From Burkholderia cenocepacia (GTDB lineage: Bacteria > Pseudomonadota > Gammaproteobacteria > Burkholderiales > Burkholderiaceae): a DNA stretch of 64,000 nucleotides. Shown one piece after another: positions 55,655 to 64,000 of this stretch. Location: positions 2,542,001-2,606,000 of the forward strand of contig NZ_CP060040.1 of the NCBI RefSeq assembly GCF_014211915.1. Direction: 5' to 3'. Every line of letters begins with the position of its first letter. Positions within the stretch are counted from its first letter, which is position 1. The translations under genes and the position numbers were made by a program. The notes beneath the pieces were generated by a model. It saw only the letters and a list, made by a program, of their open reading frames with translations, made no database searches and was not told the DNA's origin.

Positions 55655-56947
55655 ATGTCATTCGTTTTCCGCACGCTGCGCATGCCGCGTGCAGGTCGGC
55701 GCGCGCCCGTACCGTGGGCCGCGCTGCTGGTGGCGGGCGCCGTTCACGCGCAGCCGTCGCCGCTGACGCTCGACGCCGCGCTGCAGTCCGCCACCGATCG
55801 TTCCGCGTCGATGCAGGCCGCGCAGGCGTCCGTGCTCGCGCGTTCCGAAGCGGCCGTCAAGGCCGGCCAGTTGCCGGACCCGATGCTCAAGGCCGGCATC
55901 GACAACCTGCCGGTCAACGGCGGGCAGCGCTTCACCGTCGGCCAGGACTTCATGACGATGCGCCGCATCGGCATCGAGCAGGAATGGGTGTCCGGCGACA
56001 AGCGGCGGCTGCGTACCGCGCTGGCCGACGAACAGGTCGGCCGCGAGCGCGCCGGCTATCTCGTGCAGCTCGCGGCCGTGCGCCGGCAGACCGCGACGGC
56101 GTGGCTCGATGCCGTCTATGCGAAGCAGGCGCTCGCGCTTCAGCAGGCGCTGCTCGGTCACATGAACCATGAACTCGACGCGACGCAGGCGTCGTATCGC
56201 GGCGCGAAGGCGAGCGCGGGCGACGTCGTGCAGGCCCGCGCGATGCTCGCGCAGACGCAGGACCAGGTGCTCAAGGCACAGCAGGCGTATCGCACCGCGC
56301 TCATCGCGCTGGCCCGCTGGACGGCGGTGCCCGTGACGGACGTGGCCGGTACGCCGCCCGCGCCCGAATCCTTCGTATCGTCGTTGCCGCCGGACGAACT
56401 GCGCCTGTCGCAGCCGGCGCTCGTCGCCGCCGCGGACGATATCGCAGTGGCCGAAGCCGACGCCGCGGTCGCGAACAGCGAGCGCAGCCCCAACTGGACG
56501 TGGGAAATCGCGTACCAGCAGCGCGGCGGCGCGTATTCGAACATGGTGTCGGTCGGCGTCTCGATCCCGCTGCCGCTCAATCGCAAGAATCGACAGAATC
56601 GCGACGTCGCCGAAAAGGCGGCGCTCGCGACGAAGGCGCGCCTGATGTACGAGGACACGCTGCGCCAGGTACAGGCCGACATCCGCACGCAATCGGACAC
56701 GCTGGCGAGCGGCCGCGAACGCATCGCAAACCTCGGCGCCGCGCTATTGCCGGCCGCCGACCAGCGCGTGCAGCTCGCGACGGCGGCGTACCGGGCCGGC
56801 ACGGGGTCGCTTGCCGACACGTTCGTCGCGCGGCGTGCGCAACTCGAAGCGCAATTACAGGTGCTCGACCTCAGGCGCGACGTGTCGCAGACCTGGGCAC
56901 AGCTCGAATATCAGGTCGTGCCGTCGGCGATGGCCACCGCGCAGTGA
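55655..56947 (+). CDS. cusC: Outer-membrane efflux channel of the Cu/Ag system
   Basis: 430 residues of the TolC/OMF family: signal peptide ending VHAQ, then two repeats of long amphipathic helices (about 45-220 and 260-430) with the typical SVGVSIPLPLNRKNRQNRDV and AAYRAGTGSLADTFVARRAQ. It forms the outer-membrane duct for CusBA. ATG 55655 is preferred over the upstream frame. Confidence 0.85.
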   Translation: MSFVFRTLRMPRAGRRAPVPWAALLVAGAVHAQPSPLTLDAALQSATDRSASMQAAQASVLARSEAAVKAGQLPDPMLKAGIDNLPVNGGQRFTVGQDFMTMRRIGIEQEWVSGDKRRLRTALADEQVGRERAGYLVQLAAVRRQTATAWLDAVYAKQALALQQALLGHMNHELDATQASYRGAKASAGDVVQARAMLAQTQDQVLKAQQAYRTALIALARWTAVPVTDVAGTPPAPESFVSSLPPDELRLSQPALVAAADDIAVAEADAAVANSERSPNWTWEIAYQQRGGAYSNMVSVGVSIPLPLNRKNRQNRDVAEKAALATKARLMYEDTLRQVQADIRTQSDTLASGRERIANLGAALLPAADQRVQLATAAYRAGTGSLADTFVARRAQLEAQLQVLDLRRDVSQTWAQLEYQVVPSAMATAQ

Positions 56948-56958
56948 AGGAGATGCTC

Positions 56959-58482
56959 ATGACAAGGCAATCACTGATACGAGCGGTGCTGATCGCATCC
57001 GCCGGCGCGGTGCTCGTCGGCGCAGGCTATTTCGCGGGCGTTCGCCATGCGACGAACGGCGCGGCGACGGCCTCAGTGCCCGCCGCTGCGCCGTCGGGTA
57101 TGCCGGCTCAGCAGGCCGCACGCAAGGTGCTGTACTGGCACGACCCGATGGTGCCGAACCAGCACTTCGACAAACCGGGCAAATCGCCGTTCATGGACAT
57201 GCAGTTGCAGCCGGTCTATGCGGACGAAGGCGGTGCCGCGGCAGGCATCCGGATCGATCCGGGCCTGCAGCAGAACCTCGGCATCCGCTATGCGACCGTG
57301 CGTCGGCAGCAGACGGCGGCCGGCTTCGACGCGGTGGGCTCCACGCAGTTCGACGAAGCGCGTGCGGCGGTCGTGCAGTCGCGCGTCACGGGCTACATCG
57401 ACCATCTGTATGCACGCGCGCCGATGCAGCGCATCGCGAAGGGCGCGCCGGTCGCATCGCTGTTCGTGCCCGACTGGCTCGCGCCGCAGGAGGAATATCT
57501 CGCGCTGAAGCGCGGCGGCATGGACGGCAACCTGCTCGATGCGGCGCGCGCACGAATGCGTGCACTGTCGATTCCGGACGGGATGATCGCGAATCTCGAT
57601 CGTACCGGCCGCGCGCAGACGCATGTCGTGCTGAGCGCGCCGGAGACGGGCGTCGTCAGCGAGTTGAACGTGCGCGACGGCGCGATGGTCGCGCCCGGCC
57701 AGACGCTCGCGAAGATCGCCGGGCTGGCGACGCTGTGGCTGATCGTCGAGGTGCCGGAAGCGCTCGCTTTGAACGTGCAGCCGGGAATGTCGGTCGACGC
57801 GACGTTCGCGGGCGATCCGGCCCGGCATTTCAGCGGACGCATCCGCGAAGTGCTGCCCGGCATCAGCACGGGCAGCCGCACGCTGCAGGCGCGCGTGGAG
57901 ATCGACAACGCATCGCTGAAGCTCACGCCCGGCATGCTGATGCGCGTGCGGGTCGCCGCGAAGGAGACGGTGTCGCGCCTGCTCGTGCCGTCCGAGGCCG
58001 TGATCGCGACCGGCCGGCGCACGATCGTCATCGCGAAGCTCGGCGACGGCCGGCTTCAGCCGGTGTCGGTGACGGTCGGCAACGACGTCGGCGGCGACAC
58101 GGAAGTGCTCGGCGGGCTGAACGAAGGCGACACGGTTGTCGCATCGGGGCAGTTCCTGATCGATTCGGAAGCCAGCCTGAAAAGCGTGCTGCCGCGGCTC
58201 GAGCGGGCGGCAGGCGCAAGCTCGGCCGCGTCGTCCGCGACGGCAAGCGCGCCGGTCTACGAAACCACCGGCAAGGTGGAGAAAGTCACGGCCGACGACA
58301 TCACGTTCTCGCATCAGCCGGTGCCGGCGCTCGGTTGGGGCGCGATGACGATGGCGTTCGGCAAGCCGTCGGCGCACGCGTTTCCGGACGTGAAGCCGGG
58401 GCAGACCGTGCGTTTCGCGTTCACGCAGACTGACGACGGCTACCGGCTGACGAAGGTCGAGCCGCAGGGAGGTGAGCGATGA
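56959..58482 (+). CDS. cusB: Cu/Ag efflux periplasmic adaptor with fused CusF-like domain
   Basis: 507 residues. N-terminal anchor ([18 protein letters not shown]), a heavy-metal-binding segment ([29 protein letters not shown]; about 54-82), then the adaptor domains (about 100-400). Last comes a C-terminal domain of about 80 residues that is CusF-like, with ligands in [17 protein letters not shown]: His, Trp (+8), Met (+11), Met (+13), the exact CusF spacing. ATG 56959 has AAGGAG 6 bases upstream. The stop overlaps cusA by four bases. Confidence 0.88.
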
Positions 58483-61400
58483 TCGCGCGCCTCATTCACT
58501 GGTCCGTCCATCATCGGTTTCTGGTGCTGCTGGCCACCGTGCTGCTCGCGGCATGGGGCGTGCATTCGCTGCGACAGACGCCGCTCGACGCATTGCCCGA
58601 CCTGTCGGACACGCAGGTGATCGTGAAGGCGTCGTATCCGGGCAAGGCGCCGCAGGTCGTCGAGGATCAGGTGACCTATCCGCTGACGACGACGCTGCTC
58701 GGCGTGCCCGGCGCGAAAACCGTGCGTGCGTACTCGTCGTTCGGCGACGCGTTCGTCTACGTGCTGTTCGACGACCGCACCGATCCGTACTGGGCGCGCT
58801 CGCGCGTGCTCGAATACCTGAGCCAGGTGCAGAGCCGCCTGCCGGCGGGCGCGACCGTGTCGCTTGGGCCCGATGCGACCGGCGTCGGCTGGGTATACGA
58901 GTACGCGCTCGTCGATCGCACCGGCCGTCACGATCTCGGCCAGTTGCGCGCGCTCAACGACTGGTTCCTGAAGTTCGAACTGAAGGCCGTGCCGGACGTC
59001 TCCGAAGTCGCGAGCATCGGTGGCATGGTGCGCCAGTACCAGGTCGTGCTGGACCCGGACAAGCTGCGCGCATACGGCATCACGCAGGCGGCGGTCGCGG
59101 AGGCGCTCGGCAAGGCCAACCAGGCATCCGGCGGCTCGGTCGTCGAGCTGGCCGAGTCGGAGTACATGGTGCGGTCGTCCGGCTACCTGCGCACGCTCGA
59201 CGATTTCCGTCACGTCGTGCTGCGCACCGACGACACCGGCACGCCGGTCCTGCTCGGCGACGTCGCACGCATCCAGGTCGGCCCGGCGATGCGGCGCGGT
59301 ATCGCGGAACTGAACGGGCAGGGCGAAGTGACGGGCGGTGTCGTCGTGATGCGCTCGGGCAAGAACGCGCTGACGACGATCGACGCGGTGAAGGCGAAGC
59401 TCGCCGACCTCAAGCGTTCGCTGCCTGCCGGCGTCGAGATCGTCACGACCTACGACCGATCGCAACTGATCGCGCGCGCGGTCGACAACCTGACGGACAA
59501 GCTGATCGAGGAATTCGTCATCGTCGGTGTCGTCTGCGCGGTGTTCCTGTTCCATCTGCGCAGCGCGCTGGTCGCGATCCTGTCGCTGCCGCTCGGCGTA
59601 TTGGCCGCGTTCATCGTGATGCGCTACCAGGGCGTGAATGCCAACCTGATGTCGCTCGGGGGATCGCGATCGCGATCGGCGCGATGATCGACGCGGCGAT
59701 CGTGATGATCGAGAACGCGCACAAGCATCTGGAAGCGTACGACCACGCGCATCCGGGCGAGCCGCTCACGGTCGCGCGTCGCTGGGAGCTCGTCGCGGCG
59801 TCGGCGGCGGAAGTCGGGCCCGCGCTGTTCTTCTCGCTGCTGATCATCACGCTGTCGTTCGTTCCGGTGTTTTCGCTGGAAGGGCAGGAGGGCAAGCTGT
59901 TCGCGCCGCTGGCGTTCACGAAGACCTATACGATCGCGGCGGCCGCCGGGTTGTCGGTGACGCTGGTGCCGGTGCTGATGGGCTATCTGGTGCGCGGCCG
60001 CATTCCGCACGAGCACGCGAACCCGATCAATCGCGTGCTGATCCGCCTGTACCGGCCGCTGCTCGAAGCGACGTTGCGGCGCCCGTGGGCCGCGATCGGC
60101 GTGGCGGTCGTCGCGCTCGTGCTGACGGCCGTGCCGTTGTCGCGGCTCGGCGGCGAATTCATGCCGCCGCTCGACGAAGGCGATTTGCTGTACATGCCGA
60201 CCGCGCTGCCGGGCATCTCGGCGGACAAGGCGAGCGAGCTGCTGCAGCAGACCGACCGGCTGATCAAGACCGTGCCCGAGGTCGACACTGTGTTCGGCAA
60301 GTCGGGCCGAGCCGATACCGCGACCGACCCCGCGCCGCTCGAGATGTTCGAGACGACGATCCGCTTCAAGCCGCGCAGCACATGGCGGCCGGGCATGACG
60401 CCGGAGAAGCTCGTCGACGAACTCGACCGGACGGTGAGGGTGCCGGGCCTGTCGAACGTATGGGTGCCGCCGATCCGCAACCGGCTCGACATGCTGTCCA
60501 CCGGGATCAAGACGCCGGTCGGCGTGAAGATTTCCGGGCCGGACCTGACGGGAATCGACGCGATCGCGACGCAGGTCGAGGCCGCCGTGAAGCGCGTGCC
60601 GGGCGTGACGTCCGCGCTCGCGGAGCGGCTGAACGGCGGCCGCTACGTCGACGTCGACATCGATCGGCTCGCCGCCGCGCGTTACGGGCTGTCGGTGACG
60701 GATATCCAGTCGGTCGTGTCGTCGGCGATCGGCGGCGAGGACGTCGGCGAAGTGATCGCCGGGCGCGAGCGTTTCCCGATCAACATCCGCTATCCGCGCG
60801 AGATCCGCGATTCGCTCGAGAACCTGCGGCAACTGCCGGTCGTCACCGCGCGCGGCGCGCAGATTCGCCTCGGCGACGTCGCGCGTGTCGCGATCGCCGA
60901 CGGGCCGCCGATGATCCGCAGCGAGAACGCACGGCTGTCCGGCTACGTGTACGTCGATCTCCGCGGTGTCGACCTGAGCACGGCGGTTCGTGCGATGCAG
61001 CAGGCCGTCGCGCGGCAGGTCGCGTTGCCGCCCGGCTATTCGATCGCGTGGTCGGGACAGTTCGAGTATCTCGAACGCGCGGCGGCGACGCTGCGCACCG
61101 TCGTGCCCGTCACGCTCGTCGTGATCTTCGTGCTGCTGTTCGTCACGTTCGATTCGGCGGCCGACGCGTTGCTGCTGATGTCGACGGTGCCGTTCGCGCT
61201 GGTCGGCGGATTCTGGCTCGTATGGGTGCTCGGCCATGCGGTGTCCGTCGCGACGTCGGTCGGGTTCATCGCGCTGGCGGGCGTGGCGGCCGAATTCGGC
61301 GTGGTGATGCTGCTGTACCTGAAGGGCGCGCTGCAGCGCCGGCTCGATGCCGGCGAACCGCTGACCGATGCGTTGCTGCTCGACGCGATTCGCGAAGGCG

Positions 61401-61684
61401 CGGTGCTGCGCGTGCGGCCGAAGGCGATGACGGTCGCCGTCGTGCTCGCCGGCCTCGTGCCGATCATGATCGGCCACGGCGCCGGTTCCGAAGTCATGCA
61501 GCGCATCGCCGCGCCGATGGTCGGCGGCATGGTCACGGCGCCGCTGCTGTCGATGTTCGTCATTCCCGCCGCGTGGCTTCTGCTGCAGCGCCGTCGTGCG
61601 CGAAGCGCTGGCCGAGCGCGGCATTCCGATGCAGTTCCTTCCGGCACGAACGTGCCATCCCTTCCCACCGGAGAATCACGATGA
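58479..61684 (+). pseudogene. cusA: Cu/Ag RND pump CusA, apparent single-base frameshift
   Basis: Two frames join into a complete heavy-metal RND transporter of about 1068 residues (E. coli CusA 1047). Frame one runs [20 protein letters not shown] to NLMSLGG. Frame two continues [20 protein letters not shown], including the proton-relay Asp of the fourth membrane helix, to the end. The DNA at 59656-59666 reads CTCGGGGGATCG; CTCGGGGGCATCG would restore the frame, so one C is missing. The rest is intact (EFMPPLDEGDLLYMP, 12 TM segments). Real mutation would disable Cu/Ag efflux; sequence error is a serious alternative. The end overlaps cusF by four bases. Confidence 0.85.
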
Positions 61685-62049
61685 AGATGAATCAATTGAT
61701 CGCTGCTGCAACCGCTGTCGTCGCGCTGAGTGCTTTCGCGGTACCGGCGCTTGCCGCCGGCGAGATGTCGAACATGGACATGTCCGGCATGAAGATGTCG
61801 TCGGACGGTGCGGCGGAATCGAATGCCGCGCTGACCGACGCCGAAGTGAAGAAGGTCGATGCCGCGAGCGGCAAGATCACGTTGAAGCACGGCGCGCTGC
61901 AGAACGTCGGGATGCCGCCGATGACGATGGCGTTCAAGGCGAAGGATGCGGCGATGCTCGCGCAGGCGCATGCGGGCGACAAGGTCAAGGTGCGGATCGA
62001 GAAGGTCGACGGCACGTTGACGATCGTCAAACTCGTCAAGGGTTCCTGA
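61681..62049 (+). CDS. cusF: Periplasmic copper chaperone
   Basis: 122 residues: signal peptide ending ALAA, Met-rich linker (MSNMDMSGMKMSS), then the small OB-fold CusF domain. Ligands by the E. coli spacing are His70, position 78, Met81 and Met83 (LKHGALQNVGMPPMTMAF). Position 78, the Trp that caps Cu(I) in E. coli CusF, is Met here, while the CusF domain fused to CusB keeps Trp. It would shuttle Cu(I)/Ag(I) to CusB. Confidence 0.87.
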   Translation: MKMNQLIAAATAVVALSAFAVPALAAGEMSNMDMSGMKMSSDGAAESNAALTDAEVKKVDAASGKITLKHGALQNVGMPPMTMAFKAKDAAMLAQAHAGDKVKVRIEKVDGTLTIVKLVKGS

Positions 62050-62144: not shown

Positions 62145-63155
62145 TTAGCGCGCCAGCGTCACCGCCAGATACCCCGCATACCCCGCGCCGTTCGCGAGCA
62201 ATGCCCAGATCGCGAGCCCGCGCGTGCGTGCATTGACGCGCAGCCACGCCGCCGCCGCGAGCGTGATGATCACGCCGGTCAGCACTTCGGGGCGCGGCTC
62301 CCACGGCGTCAGCATGATGCCGATCGCCGGCAGCAGCGTGCCCTGGAACACCATCGCGCCGGTGATGTTGCCGAACGCGAGCGTGTCTTTCCCGCGGCGA
62401 ATCCACAGCACGCTGTTGACCTTCTCCGGCAGCTCCGTCGCGATCGGCACGATGATCAGCGACAGCAGCAGCGCCGACACGCCGAGCACGTGCGACACGC
62501 CTTCCACGCCGCGAATGAAGCCCTTCGCCCCGCCGACCAGCAGCGCGACGCCGATCAGCAGTTGCAGCACGATCGTCGCCAGGTTGGTCGGCAGGCCGAT
62601 GCGCGACAGCAACATCGCGTGCGGCGCCTCGGTGCCGTGCCCGGCATCGACGAGCCGGGTCGACGCACGGAACGTCAGCACGACGTACATCACGTAGAGG
62701 CCGACTAGCATCGCGGCGAGCAGCGCGCGCACGGCCCAGTTGTGATGCGGGACGAACATCGCGACGGTCGCCAGCGAGAAGGCGGCGAGGAAGGTGTTCA
62801 TGTCGCGCACGAAGCCCGTGCGTTCGGGCGCGATCGTGCCGCGCGGCCCGCGCGAGCGGATCACGGCGAGCGCCATCAGGAACGTGGTGAGCGTCACGAG
62901 CATCAACGGCGCGCCGAGAATCGCGCCGACGCCGATCTCCTCGTTCACGGCCTGGCTCGACGTGCCGCCGGCGAGCGCGAGCAGCGGCACCATCGTTTCG
63001 GGCAGCGCGGTGCCGACGGCCGCGAACAGCGAGCCGGTCACGCCTTCGGAAATCTTCAGGCGTTCGCCGAGATGTTCGAGCGCATTGGTGAAGACTTCGG
63101 CCGCGACGAGGATGACGATCAGCATGAACGCGAGTTCGACGAACATGAAAGTCAT
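62145..63155 (-). CDS. CaCA-type cation antiporter, probable Mn2+ exporter
   Basis: 336 residues, about 10 membrane helices in two inverted halves, each with a calcium/cation-antiporter alpha repeat: FAAVGTALPETMVPLLAL in the first and LSLIIVPIATELPEKVNSVL in the second (acidic E in both). Annotated family members are usually called sodium:calcium antiporters. The leader carries a yybP-ykoY-like riboswitch, which senses Mn2+, so manganese export is the better guess (inference). ATG 63155 has GGAGGT upstream; an ATG at 63239 would place coding sequence inside the riboswitch. Confidence 0.8.
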   Translation of the reverse strand: MTFMFVELAFMLIVILVAAEVFTNALEHLGERLKISEGVTGSLFAAVGTALPETMVPLLALAGGTSSQAVNEEIGVGAILGAPLMLVTLTTFLMALAVIRSRGPRGTIAPERTGFVRDMNTFLAAFSLATVAMFVPHHNWAVRALLAAMLVGLYVMYVVLTFRASTRLVDAGHGTEAPHAMLLSRIGLPTNLATIVLQLLIGVALLVGGAKGFIRGVEGVSHVLGVSALLLSLIIVPIATELPEKVNSVLWIRRGKDTLAFGNITGAMVFQGTLLPAIGIMLTPWEPRPEVLTGVIITLAAAAWLRVNARTRGLAIWALLANGAGYAGYLAVTLAR

Positions 63156-63204
63156 GCGACACCTCCGCGGGCAGCGGTGGCGTGAGGGAAGCGAGGGGGA
63201 GGAA

Positions 63205-63385
63205 CATGGGGACTCCGTGGTCGGACGCTGACGAACCATGACACATCCGCCGACGTCCGACCAGGAACGACGCGATGTGCCGATGGTCTCGCCAAGCCGA
63301 TCAGGCTGAACGCGCCACGGCCGCAGGCCGAGTGTGTTGACGCGTTCGCTTTCCGGGAGACGGAAAGCAGGCTACTCCCCAAAGA
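63205..63385 (-). ncRNA. yybP-ykoY (manganese) riboswitch in the antiporter leader
   Basis: Read on the minus strand, the leader begins TTTGGGGAGTAGCCTG (63383 down to 63368), the hallmark 5' piece of this class. A closing P1 strand, GAGTCCCCA, lies at 63213-63207 and pairs with TGGGGA. Inside are the conserved GTCAACACACTCGGC (about 63341-63327), GGCGAGACC (about 63293-63285) and a terminal GTCCGACCA arm (63225-63218). A 9-base helix CGTCCGACC/GGTCGGACG is available. The order and spacing match yybP-ykoY aptamers, which bind Mn2+ and switch on Mn export genes. About 50 bases remain to the start codon for the expression platform. Confidence 0.8.
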
Positions 63386-63444
63386 CGGAAAGCAGTCTAG
63401 CCGAGCGGTTTTCTTTCGACAAGCCTTCGTCTCGAAAAAATATA

Positions 63445-63501
63445 CCCCTCCGCCCTATAGGGGCAGCGCTTAGGAGATATACTCCCCTACCCTATACAGG
63501 A
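63445..63501 (+). promoter_or_regulatory. Promoter and probable operator of dmeRF
   Basis: An inverted repeat CCCCT (63445-63449)/AGGGG (63459-63463) inside TATACCCCTCCGCCCTATAG is followed by a second C-rich, ATA-flanked element, ATACTCCCCTACCCTATA (63479-63496). The -10 box TATACT is at 63478-63483. G/C tracts flanked by AT inverted repeats are the known target form for RcnR/FrmR/CsoR repressors, so DmeR autoregulation fits. Confidence 0.62.
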
Positions 63502-63508
63502 GCCATCG

Positions 63509-63784
63509 ATGAGTCATACCGTTCGCGAAAAACAGAAGCTGCTGAACCGCGTGCGCCGTATCAAGGGACAGGTCGAGGCGATCGAGCGGGCGCTGGAAGA
63601 AGAGCGCGACTGCAACGACGTGCTGCAACTGATCACGAGCTGCCGCGGCGCGATGAACGGCCTGCTGGCGGTCGTGCTGGAAGACCACATCCGGTCGCAT
63701 CTCGTCGATGCGGACACGCCCGATGCGCACGAAGGCAGCGCGACCGAGCAGCTGATCGAGGTCGTCCACAGCTATTTCAAGTAA
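63509..63784 (+). CDS. dmeR: RcnR/CsoR-family metal-sensing repressor
   Basis: 91 residues, all-helical. The four Ni/Co ligands known from RcnR (His3, Cys35, His60, His64) are all present by count: MSHTVRE, EERDCNDV and LEDHIRSHL. This favours Ni/Co sensing over Cu (CsoR) or formaldehyde (FrmR). AGGAG lies 7 bases before the ATG. It precedes a cation diffusion facilitator gene by 12 bases, the dmeRF arrangement. Confidence 0.85.
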   Translation: MSHTVREKQKLLNRVRRIKGQVEAIERALEEERDCNDVLQLITSCRGAMNGLLAVVLEDHIRSHLVDADTPDAHEGSATEQLIEVVHSYFK

Positions 63785-63796
63785 GCGGATCGGAAC

Positions 63797-64000
63797 ATGA
63801 ACGAATTCAAGAGCCCGGCGGCCGGCGGCGCGCACAGTCACGCGTTTCTGGGCGCCGCCCATGCGCGCAACGAGCGGAAGACGTGGATGGTCATCGGCCT
63901 GTGCACGGCGATGATGATCGCCGAGATCGTCGGCGGCACGCTGTTCGGATCGCTCGCGCTGGTCGCGGACGGGCTGCACATGTCGACGCATGCGGGCGCG
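63797..64000 (+). CDS. dmeF: Cation diffusion facilitator (DmeF type), cut by window end
   Basis: First 68 codons only: MNEFKSPAAGGAHSHAFLGA, then HARNERKTWMVIGLCTAMMI and AEIVGGTLFGSLALVADGLH with the conserved HMSTHAGA. This is helix 1-2 of a CDF metal/proton antiporter with the metal-site ADGLH-x3-H pattern. With DmeR upstream it should export Co2+/Ni2+. GGA precedes the ATG closely. The remainder lies right of the window. Confidence 0.82.
   Translation, partial: MNEFKSPAAGGAHSHAFLGAAHARNERKTWMVIGLCTAMMIAEIVGGTLFGSLALVADGLHMSTHAGA

What the first reader, a model, noticed from the sequence alone, without database searches (positions are those of the whole stretch)
63205..63385. Mn-type riboswitch controlling a CaCA antiporter
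The leader of the antiporter gene carries the full set of yybP-ykoY signature pieces in order (GGGGAGTAGCC, GTCAACACACTCGGC, GGCGAGACC, GTCCGACCA, closing TCCCCA). Known members of this class respond to Mn2+ and control Mn exporters. This links a gene normally annotated as Na/Ca antiporter to manganese export.
Basis: partly seen in the sequence, partly recalled or inferred. Interest (0 to 1): 0.75.

Follow-up and report, generated by a model that had tools for sequence, protein, structure and literature searches.

The report
Manganese riboswitch before a CaCA exporter
A real manganese-sensing RNA switch sits in front of a transporter gene that databases call a sodium/calcium antiporter; the same kind of pair was already shown to export manganese in Bordetella, and in most relatives of this gene the switch opens onto a short leader frame that overlaps the transporter gene.

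Summary
The riboswitch is real: RF00080 (yybP-ykoY, Mn2+) matches window 63392-63217 (-) over its whole length, 68.9 bits, E 6e-16. The gene behind it (62145-63155, -) is a CaCA (Na_Ca_ex) antiporter. The window protein is of a sister lineage (about 30% identical) with the same altered ion-site motif. In 65 Burkholderia genomes RF00080 precedes 43 of 44 window-type and 6 of 6 Bordetella-type genes, but 0 of 58 window-type relatives at 47-69% identity in a sample of 300 Burkholderiales. New here: the switch ends at a fixed start codon about 72-90 nt past the aptamer's GAGAC. In Bordetella-type mRNAs outside Burkholderiaceae that codon starts the antiporter (85 of 86). In window-type mRNAs it starts a 17-62-codon leader frame whose stop overlaps the antiporter start in 81 of 86 loci, over many spacer lengths. 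The window's own copy is out of register. I infer Mn-induced translation passed on by termination-reinitiation. Mn binding, direction of the helix switch and transport are untested.

The parts
63394..63399 (-). -10-like hexamer of a possible leader promoter
   Evidence: read; the Bordetella leader has TACAAT as a plausible -10 (PMC8546581). The consensus scan found no promoter in 63100-63520, so this is weak
63279..63386 (-). Mn2+ riboswitch aptamer (P1-P4; the Rfam match spans 63392-63217)
   Evidence: RF00080 68.9 bits; two-sided changes in P2, P3, P4 helices
63234..63287 (-). expression platform helix A: arms 63287-63274 and 63247-63234; uses the 3' strand of P1, so excludes P1 (anti-P1)
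   Evidence: 13 pairs, 94.9% of cells paired, 3 pairs changed on both sides in 14 leaders; weaker in 26 leaders (77.6%); pair probabilities 0.76-1.0 in a 163-nt nascent transcript
63218..63263 (-). expression platform helix B: arms 63263-63254 and 63227-63218; crosses helix A
   Evidence: 10 pairs, 95.7% of cells paired, 3 changed on both sides; 90.8% and 5 of 10 in 26 leaders of both antiporter types
63205..63216 (-). start region of the leader frame: GGAG at 63216-63213 and ATG at 63207-63205
   Evidence: a leader frame starts at this place in 81 of 86 window-type leaders. In this genome the frame does not end at the antiporter start
63162..63166 (-). Shine-Dalgarno-like GGAGG of the antiporter
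62145..63155 (-). CaCA antiporter gene, 336 aa, ATG at 63155, stop included
   Evidence: PF01699 2.8e-28; AlphaFold model pLDDT 89.1, best PDB fold match H+/Ca2+ exchanger CAX 4kpp, NCX_Mj also found

Best explanation
The leader is a Mn2+-sensing ON riboswitch (class shown by covariance model; Mn2+ sensing taken from the class) that raises production of a CaCA-fold transporter which exports Mn2+ (inferred). With little Mn2+, the nascent RNA folds helix A, which takes the 3' strand of P1 and breaks the aptamer. With enough Mn2+, P1 is held, helix A cannot form and helix B does (mutual exclusion read from the sequence and covariation; the direction is inferred). Output goes to a fixed start codon just after helix B. 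In most window-type mRNAs it opens a short leader frame whose stop overlaps the antiporter start, so ribosomes would hand over by termination-reinitiation (architecture shown; coupling inferred). In this one genome the leader frame is out of register, so the antiporter would depend more on its own GGAGG. Leaders that are not translated may also lose transcripts to premature termination, as reported for Bordetella and E. coli (literature).
For: Riboswitch: (E 6e-16), covariation. Target: next to 43 of 44 window-type and 6 of 6 Bordetella-type genes in 65 Burkholderia genomes. Bordetella-type genes named in Achromobacter, Bordetella, Dyella and others keep the riboswitch: strict motif pair in 68 of 80 loci, 11 of the other 12 by eye. 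Function by kinship: BP3410 is Mn-induced and exports Mn; calcium had no effect on its expression (stated there as data not shown; PMC8546581). Shared ion-site motif GTALPE / GxGAxxGxPL and ATELPE / NIxGAMxxQ in both types (invariant or nearly so in 38 aligned proteins), unlike the few classical references seen (YrbG, L130, L149, NCX_Mj). Leader frame: stop overlaps the gene start in 81 of 86 window-type loci; without that condition, 80 of 83 first start codons are in that frame, 2 are the gene itself, 1 is the window's own; also in 13 of 17 Bordetella-type loci of Burkholderiaceae. Platform fold order.
Against: No Mn2+ binding, expression or transport was measured here. Constrained folding did not show an opening of the leader start region: the first two Gs of its GGAG are paired (unpaired P at most 0.02) in both forced states in 4 of 4 leaders folded, the last two vary. 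No intrinsic terminator was found in the window leader or in Bordetella petrii L185. Helix A is weakly supported in the wider set (77.6% paired; covariation 0.192 against 0.178 for one slid control). 58 of 58 window-type relatives at 47-69% identity in the order sample lack an RF00080 hit, so Mn export by this protein lineage does not follow from the pairing alone. The window's own leader frame is out of register, so the coupling as described does not operate in this genome.
Confidence: 0.78

Rival explanations
1. The riboswitch controls the antiporter, but the protein is a calcium or sodium/calcium exchanger and Mn2+ control reflects Mn2+/Ca2+ cross-talk rather than Mn2+ export.
For: Pfam and NCBIfam names are Na/Ca; the fold matches Ca2+/H+ and Na+/Ca2+ exchangers; both central glutamates (E53, E244) are kept.
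Against: Residues aligned with NCX_Mj S77, S236 and D240 are A82, A267 and Q271 (my reading; their role in Na+ binding is recalled); the related BP3410 exports Mn (PMC8546581).
Confidence: 0.12
2. The overlapping leader frame is chance: GC-rich leaders are often open, and the fixed ATG or GTG is only part of a structural motif.
For: A base-shuffled interior stays open in 65% of cases on average; the peptides are hardly conserved; 31 of the 40 leader frames found outside Burkholderia start with GTG, a common triplet in GC-rich DNA. The loci are related, not independent.
Against: 80 of 83 first start codons share one frame over 19 distinct distances, where one third is expected; the same relation recurs in 13 of 17 Bordetella-type loci of Burkholderiaceae; leaders without a leader frame mostly start the gene itself at that place.
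Confidence: 0.1
3. Control is at transcription: apo RNA stops early (Rho-dependent or at a weak hairpin) and the leader frame only serves to keep ribosomes behind RNA polymerase.
For: The Bordetella leader overlaps a roughly 200-nt RNA seen without Mn (PMC8546581); the E. coli mntP leader is a Rho platform that Mn partly suppresses (PMC11647493, passages).
Against: No terminator found by the consensus scan; it is not exclusive with translational control.
Confidence: 0.4

Closest known systems
BP3410 of Bordetella pertussis (CaCA Mn exporter under yybP-ykoY; PMC8546581)
   Same: Same riboswitch class, homologous platform helix B in leaders of its kind, same altered ion-site motif in its kin, same predicted job. 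The BP3410 sequence itself was not fetched; other Bordetella species were.
   Different: About 30% protein identity to its kin and a separate clade; in its group outside Burkholderiaceae 85 of 86 parsed loci have no leader frame. The B. pertussis copy carries a published inhibitory duplication; named only.
mntP and alx riboswitches of E. coli, yybP and ykoY of Bacillus, yoaB of Lactococcus
   Same: Same aptamer class, Mn2+ ON switches.
   Different: Control other gene families (recalled and from search listings); their platforms were not compared here.
ppe2 B12 riboswitch with translated leader uPPE2 in M. tuberculosis (PMC11260477, abstract, section list and section 20 read)
   Same: Riboswitch acts on a short leader frame that overlaps the gene as AUGA, with termination-reinitiation.
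   Different: Other ligand and aptamer, an OFF switch; shown by experiment there, inferred here.
GDT1/UPF0016 gene with RF00080 on contig C1 of the same genome
   Same: Mn riboswitch before a putative Mn exporter.
   Different: Other protein family; different platform sequence by eye, gene start read directly behind the leader.

Membership tests
yybP-ykoY Mn2+ riboswitch (RF00080) | covariance model match above the curated cut-off over the whole model | tested here: met
   68.9 bits, cut-off 45, positions 1-177
yybP-ykoY Mn2+ riboswitch (RF00080) | conserved helices kept by compensatory change | tested here: met
   (P2, P3, P4; P1 mostly invariant)
yybP-ykoY Mn2+ riboswitch (RF00080) | Mn2+-dependent folding and expression | not testable with these tools
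   needs in-line probing or reporters
CaCA antiporter superfamily | two Na_Ca_ex domains with alpha repeats | tested here: met
   PF01699, 99.2 bits, two stretches; fold matches
Classical Na+/Ca2+ exchanger (YrbG / NCX type) | GNxxGSNxxN-type second half of the repeats | tested here: not met
   GVGAILGAPLML and GNITGAMVFQ instead; 81.1 and 48.9 bits against NCBIfam cut-offs 179.65 and 432
BP3410-type Mn exporter clade | falls inside that clade | tested here: not met
   Bordetella-type group is one side of a branch with support 97/100, window type outside; root and long branches uncertain
BP3410-type Mn exporter clade | Mn2+ efflux activity | not testable with these tools
   no transport data for the window type
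Riboswitch with translated, coupled leader frame (as ppe2) | stop of the leader frame overlaps the start of the gene | tested here: not met
   not met in the window's own copy; met in 81 of 86 window-type loci
Riboswitch with translated, coupled leader frame (as ppe2) | leader frame is translated and needed for the gene | not testable with these tools
   only frame conservation was tested

The most novel reading that the evidence does not exclude
The Mn riboswitch of these antiporters behaves as a cassette that ends in its own start codon. Exporter genes of two distant CaCA lineages have come to lie behind it, either fused directly to that codon or through a short leader frame of free sequence and length that hands ribosomes over at an ATGA or GTGA overlap. 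Mn2+ thus switches a start codon, and coupling passes the signal on. The window's genome shows a break of this handover.
Probability: 0.55. Interest if true: 0.55.

Novelty: new variant of a known kind. Interest (0 to 1): 0.4.

Why it matters
Many genes are named sodium/calcium antiporter (the search alone scored 7996 relatives, only the candidates sharing most words). A recognisable motif (GxGAxxGxPL and NIxGAMxxQ), together with the riboswitch, would let some of them be re-annotated as likely Mn exporters. The leader-frame architecture makes riboswitch control plus termination-reinitiation testable in many natural variants, and suggests how one riboswitch cassette can come to serve unlike genes.

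Tried and rejected
Intrinsic terminator in the leader: none found. Gating of the leader start region by constrained folding: not seen. TCCCCA as the P1 closing strand: rejected. A methionine in the ion site as the Mn selector (by analogy with NRAMP, recalled): M268 aligns with NCX_Mj N237, which I do not know to be a ligand, so not claimed. Swap of the two antiporter types at one place: both types sit near RcnR/FrmR-like and DmeF genes (L115, L117, Massilia L241), but divergent in the window and on the same strand in those three, so a simple in-place swap is not supported; L116, L118, L119 and L120 showed neither neighbour within about 5 kb. MntP in this genome: none. Of 14 CaCA reference loci tried (13, L083), seven gave no usable frame, L083 was read in a wrong frame and four ChaA-like rows (L143-L146) were left out of the tree, so the classical references are few: L130, L149, YrbG, and NCX_Mj as printed.

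Dropped before counts: one search left out of its classes G125, G198 and G228, and its row 'B 32-36' (8) holds two weak partial hits (G291, G142), so real Bordetella-type is 6 of 6. Searches used stricter Infernal filters that lose weak matches; of the 58 relatives without a hit, the 38 whose upstream DNA I had show no GGGGAGTA core. One search did not count L116, L118, L119 (of 17 Bordetella-type loci in Burkholderiaceae) and L066, L211, L221 (of 89 others), and missed the core or the frame in six more (L299, L302, L305-L308); a recount with a looser pattern found the leader frame in all nine of those from Burkholderiaceae. in turn did not parse L303, L304, L309 and L211; the first three stand as. 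Together: 13 of 17 with a leader frame, 4 of 17 direct. L066 and L221 start directly; L211 shows no riboswitch. Three hits (G368, G412, split G447) were not fetched. Because of this recount I raised the odds of the novel reading from 0.50 to 0.55.

Literature: the library holds open-licence papers only. For a uORF with yybP-ykoY I saw nothing: 8 papers, listing; top 15 of 417, none of them holding yybP-ykoY; 4 papers; one opened, PMC9426467, which has the term only in its references; the other three not opened. Burkholderia plus 'manganese riboswitch': 1 paper, on Herbaspirillum, whose switch lies before mntP.

Full report
Observation. The covariance model for the Mn2+ riboswitch (RF00080) is the only gathering-level Rfam hit in the window and lies at 63392-63217 on the minus strand, 68.9 bits against a cut-off of 45, E 6.1e-16. 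The gene behind it starts at ATG 63155 (GGAGG at 63166-63162) and ends at 62145; its 336-aa product matches Na_Ca_ex (PF01699, 2.8e-28). The nearest named record found is Burkholderia cenocepacia CMCC(B)23006, 97.4% over 2.5 kb, in the plasmid collection, which is only a part of what is sequenced; the genome has 7.6 Mb in 4 contigs, so the host is a B. cenocepacia-like member of the B. cepacia complex (inference).

Prior art. In Bordetella pertussis, BP3410, a CaCA protein, lies behind a yybP-ykoY riboswitch; Mn induces it, calcium does not (data not shown there), changing two conserved aptamer Gs abolishes the induction, and strains without a functional copy held about five-fold more Mn (PMC8546581, sections 5 and 9 read; passages). 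A review lists it among Mn exporters (PMC9936198, passages).

What lies in the same genome. A second RF00080 match (56.4 bits) sits on contig C1 before a GDT1/UPF0016 gene. No MntP family member was found. One other CaCA-type gene exists elsewhere on contig C2.

Distribution. Of 300 Burkholderiales genomes, 75 have a homologue at E <= 1e-10. Overlaying the RF00080 places gives the riboswitch just upstream of 6 of 6 homologues at 73-100% identity, 0 of 58 at 47-69%, and 6 of 6 whole ones at 32-36% (five weak partial hits set aside). In the genus, 65 of 65 genomes have RF00080 and 50 of 65 a homologue: 44 window-type (42 whole, one split, one fragment) of which 43 have the riboswitch, and 6 Bordetella-type, all with it; no genome has both. 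A scan of named genomes with the Bordetella-type alignment kept 80 loci (of 412 encoding relatives), in Achromobacter, Bordetella, Dyella, Luteibacter, Chromobacterium, Acinetobacter and others; 68 of 80 pass a strict two-motif test, 11 of the other 12 show the core by eye, L211 does not.

Tree. In a 60-row tree (careful IQ-TREE) the Bordetella type is one side of a branch (97/100). The riboswitch-bearing window type sits among riboswitch-less relatives; two riboswitch-less rows (L009, L010) are sisters of L008, which has it. The trait needs 3 changes. Some inner supports are modest (79/87 for the branch holding the riboswitch-bearing rows with L009 and L010), and long outgroup branches make the root unsure, so gain and loss cannot be told apart.

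Ion site. Invariant across 38 proteins of both types: T49, E53, T240, E244, with P83, A267 and Q271; M268 is nearly so. The few classical references (YrbG, L130, L149, and NCX_Mj as printed) differ there. Mapping to NCX_Mj numbering was done by me; which of those residues bind Na+ is recalled, not from a call. I infer loss of the classical Na+ sites with the divalent site kept. The AlphaFold model (pLDDT 89.1, pTM 0.87) matches H+/Ca2+ exchangers (4kpp, TM 0.73 by query length) and NCX_Mj (3v5u, TM 0.63).

Expression platform. After the aptamer come two helices that cannot coexist as nested pairs: A reuses the 3' strand of P1, B crosses A. In 14 window-type leaders A is 94.9% paired with 3 of 13 pairs changed on both sides and B 95.7% with 3 of 10. 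In 26 leaders of both types B stays at 90.8% with 5 of 10 such pairs; A falls to 77.6%, and one slid control comes close in covariation score (0.178 against 0.192). The energy model puts a fold with A at -108.7 and one with B at -111.5 kcal/mol; in 163- and 179-nt nascent transcripts A dominates, in the full leader B. Which state is the Mn-bound one is inferred. Folding did not show the leader start region opening.

Leader frame. In the 42 whole window-type loci of the genus and in 44 from other genera, I looked for a start codon 70-92 nt past the GAGAC of the aptamer. In 81 of 86 it opens a frame whose stop overlaps the antiporter start (41 of 42 and 40 of 44); 2 start the antiporter itself there; 2 have no recognisable aptamer core; 1, the window's own, has a frame that does not end there. 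Without conditioning on the overlap, of 84 leaders with a core the first ATG or GTG at 74-92 nt is in that frame in 80, in the gene's own frame in 2, in the third frame in 1 (the window), and absent in 1. Nineteen distinct distances all keep the frame, so frame, not length, is kept; relatedness means that the loci are not independent events. A shuffled interior stays open in 65% of cases, so openness by itself says little. The peptides are hardly conserved, which argues for translation as such and not for a peptide product. In the Bordetella-type group outside Burkholderiaceae, 85 of 86 parsed loci start the antiporter directly at this place and 1 (L067) has a leader frame; L066 and L221 start directly too. 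Within Burkholderiaceae 13 of 17 Bordetella-type loci have the leader frame, among them 6 of 6 from Burkholderia, and 4 of 17 start directly. A riboswitch-controlled, AUGA-coupled leader is known from the M. tuberculosis ppe2 switch (PMC11260477, abstract and section 20); I found none described for the Mn class.

Verdict. The finding is real and its interpretation sound, but of a published kind. The new parts are a second CaCA lineage under the same cassette and the leader frame that overlaps the gene, which is out of register in the window's own genome (natural change or assembly error cannot be told).

Noticed in passing
63155-63207: The leader frame starting at 63207 is out of register with the antiporter start in this genome only, among 42 whole window-type loci of the genus; the other 41 have it in register.
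   Followed up: partly
63441-63497: Two similar G-rich, TATA-flanked repeats between the divergent RcnR/FrmR-like gene and the riboswitch look like operators of that regulator (by eye).
   Followed up: no
63509-64000: Divergent CsoR-family repressor (RcnR/FrmR-like) and a DmeF-like Co/Ni exporter; similar neighbours occur beside Bordetella-type antiporters in L115, L117 and a Massilia plasmid.
   Followed up: partly
56500-62049: Cus-like efflux genes (by look of the frames) downstream on the other strand; their end resembles annotated plasmid-borne copper genes of other Burkholderia.
   Followed up: no
L241:1-1500: Massilia putida (mine tailing) plasmid: an IS256-family gene lies upstream of the antiporter and only the tail of the leader is visible by eye.
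   Followed up: no
L297, L298: Two small-genome members of the family (about 1.1-1.2 Mb) have antiporter genes whose leader no longer shows the aptamer core.
   Followed up: no
L122, L123: Two Burkholderia genomes carry broken window-type antiporter genes (one split into two frames, one fragment); described only.
   Followed up: no
L239:2483-3496: A conjugative Enterobacter cloacae plasmid carries a 63% identical homologue; no riboswitch core seen upstream by motif.
   Followed up: no
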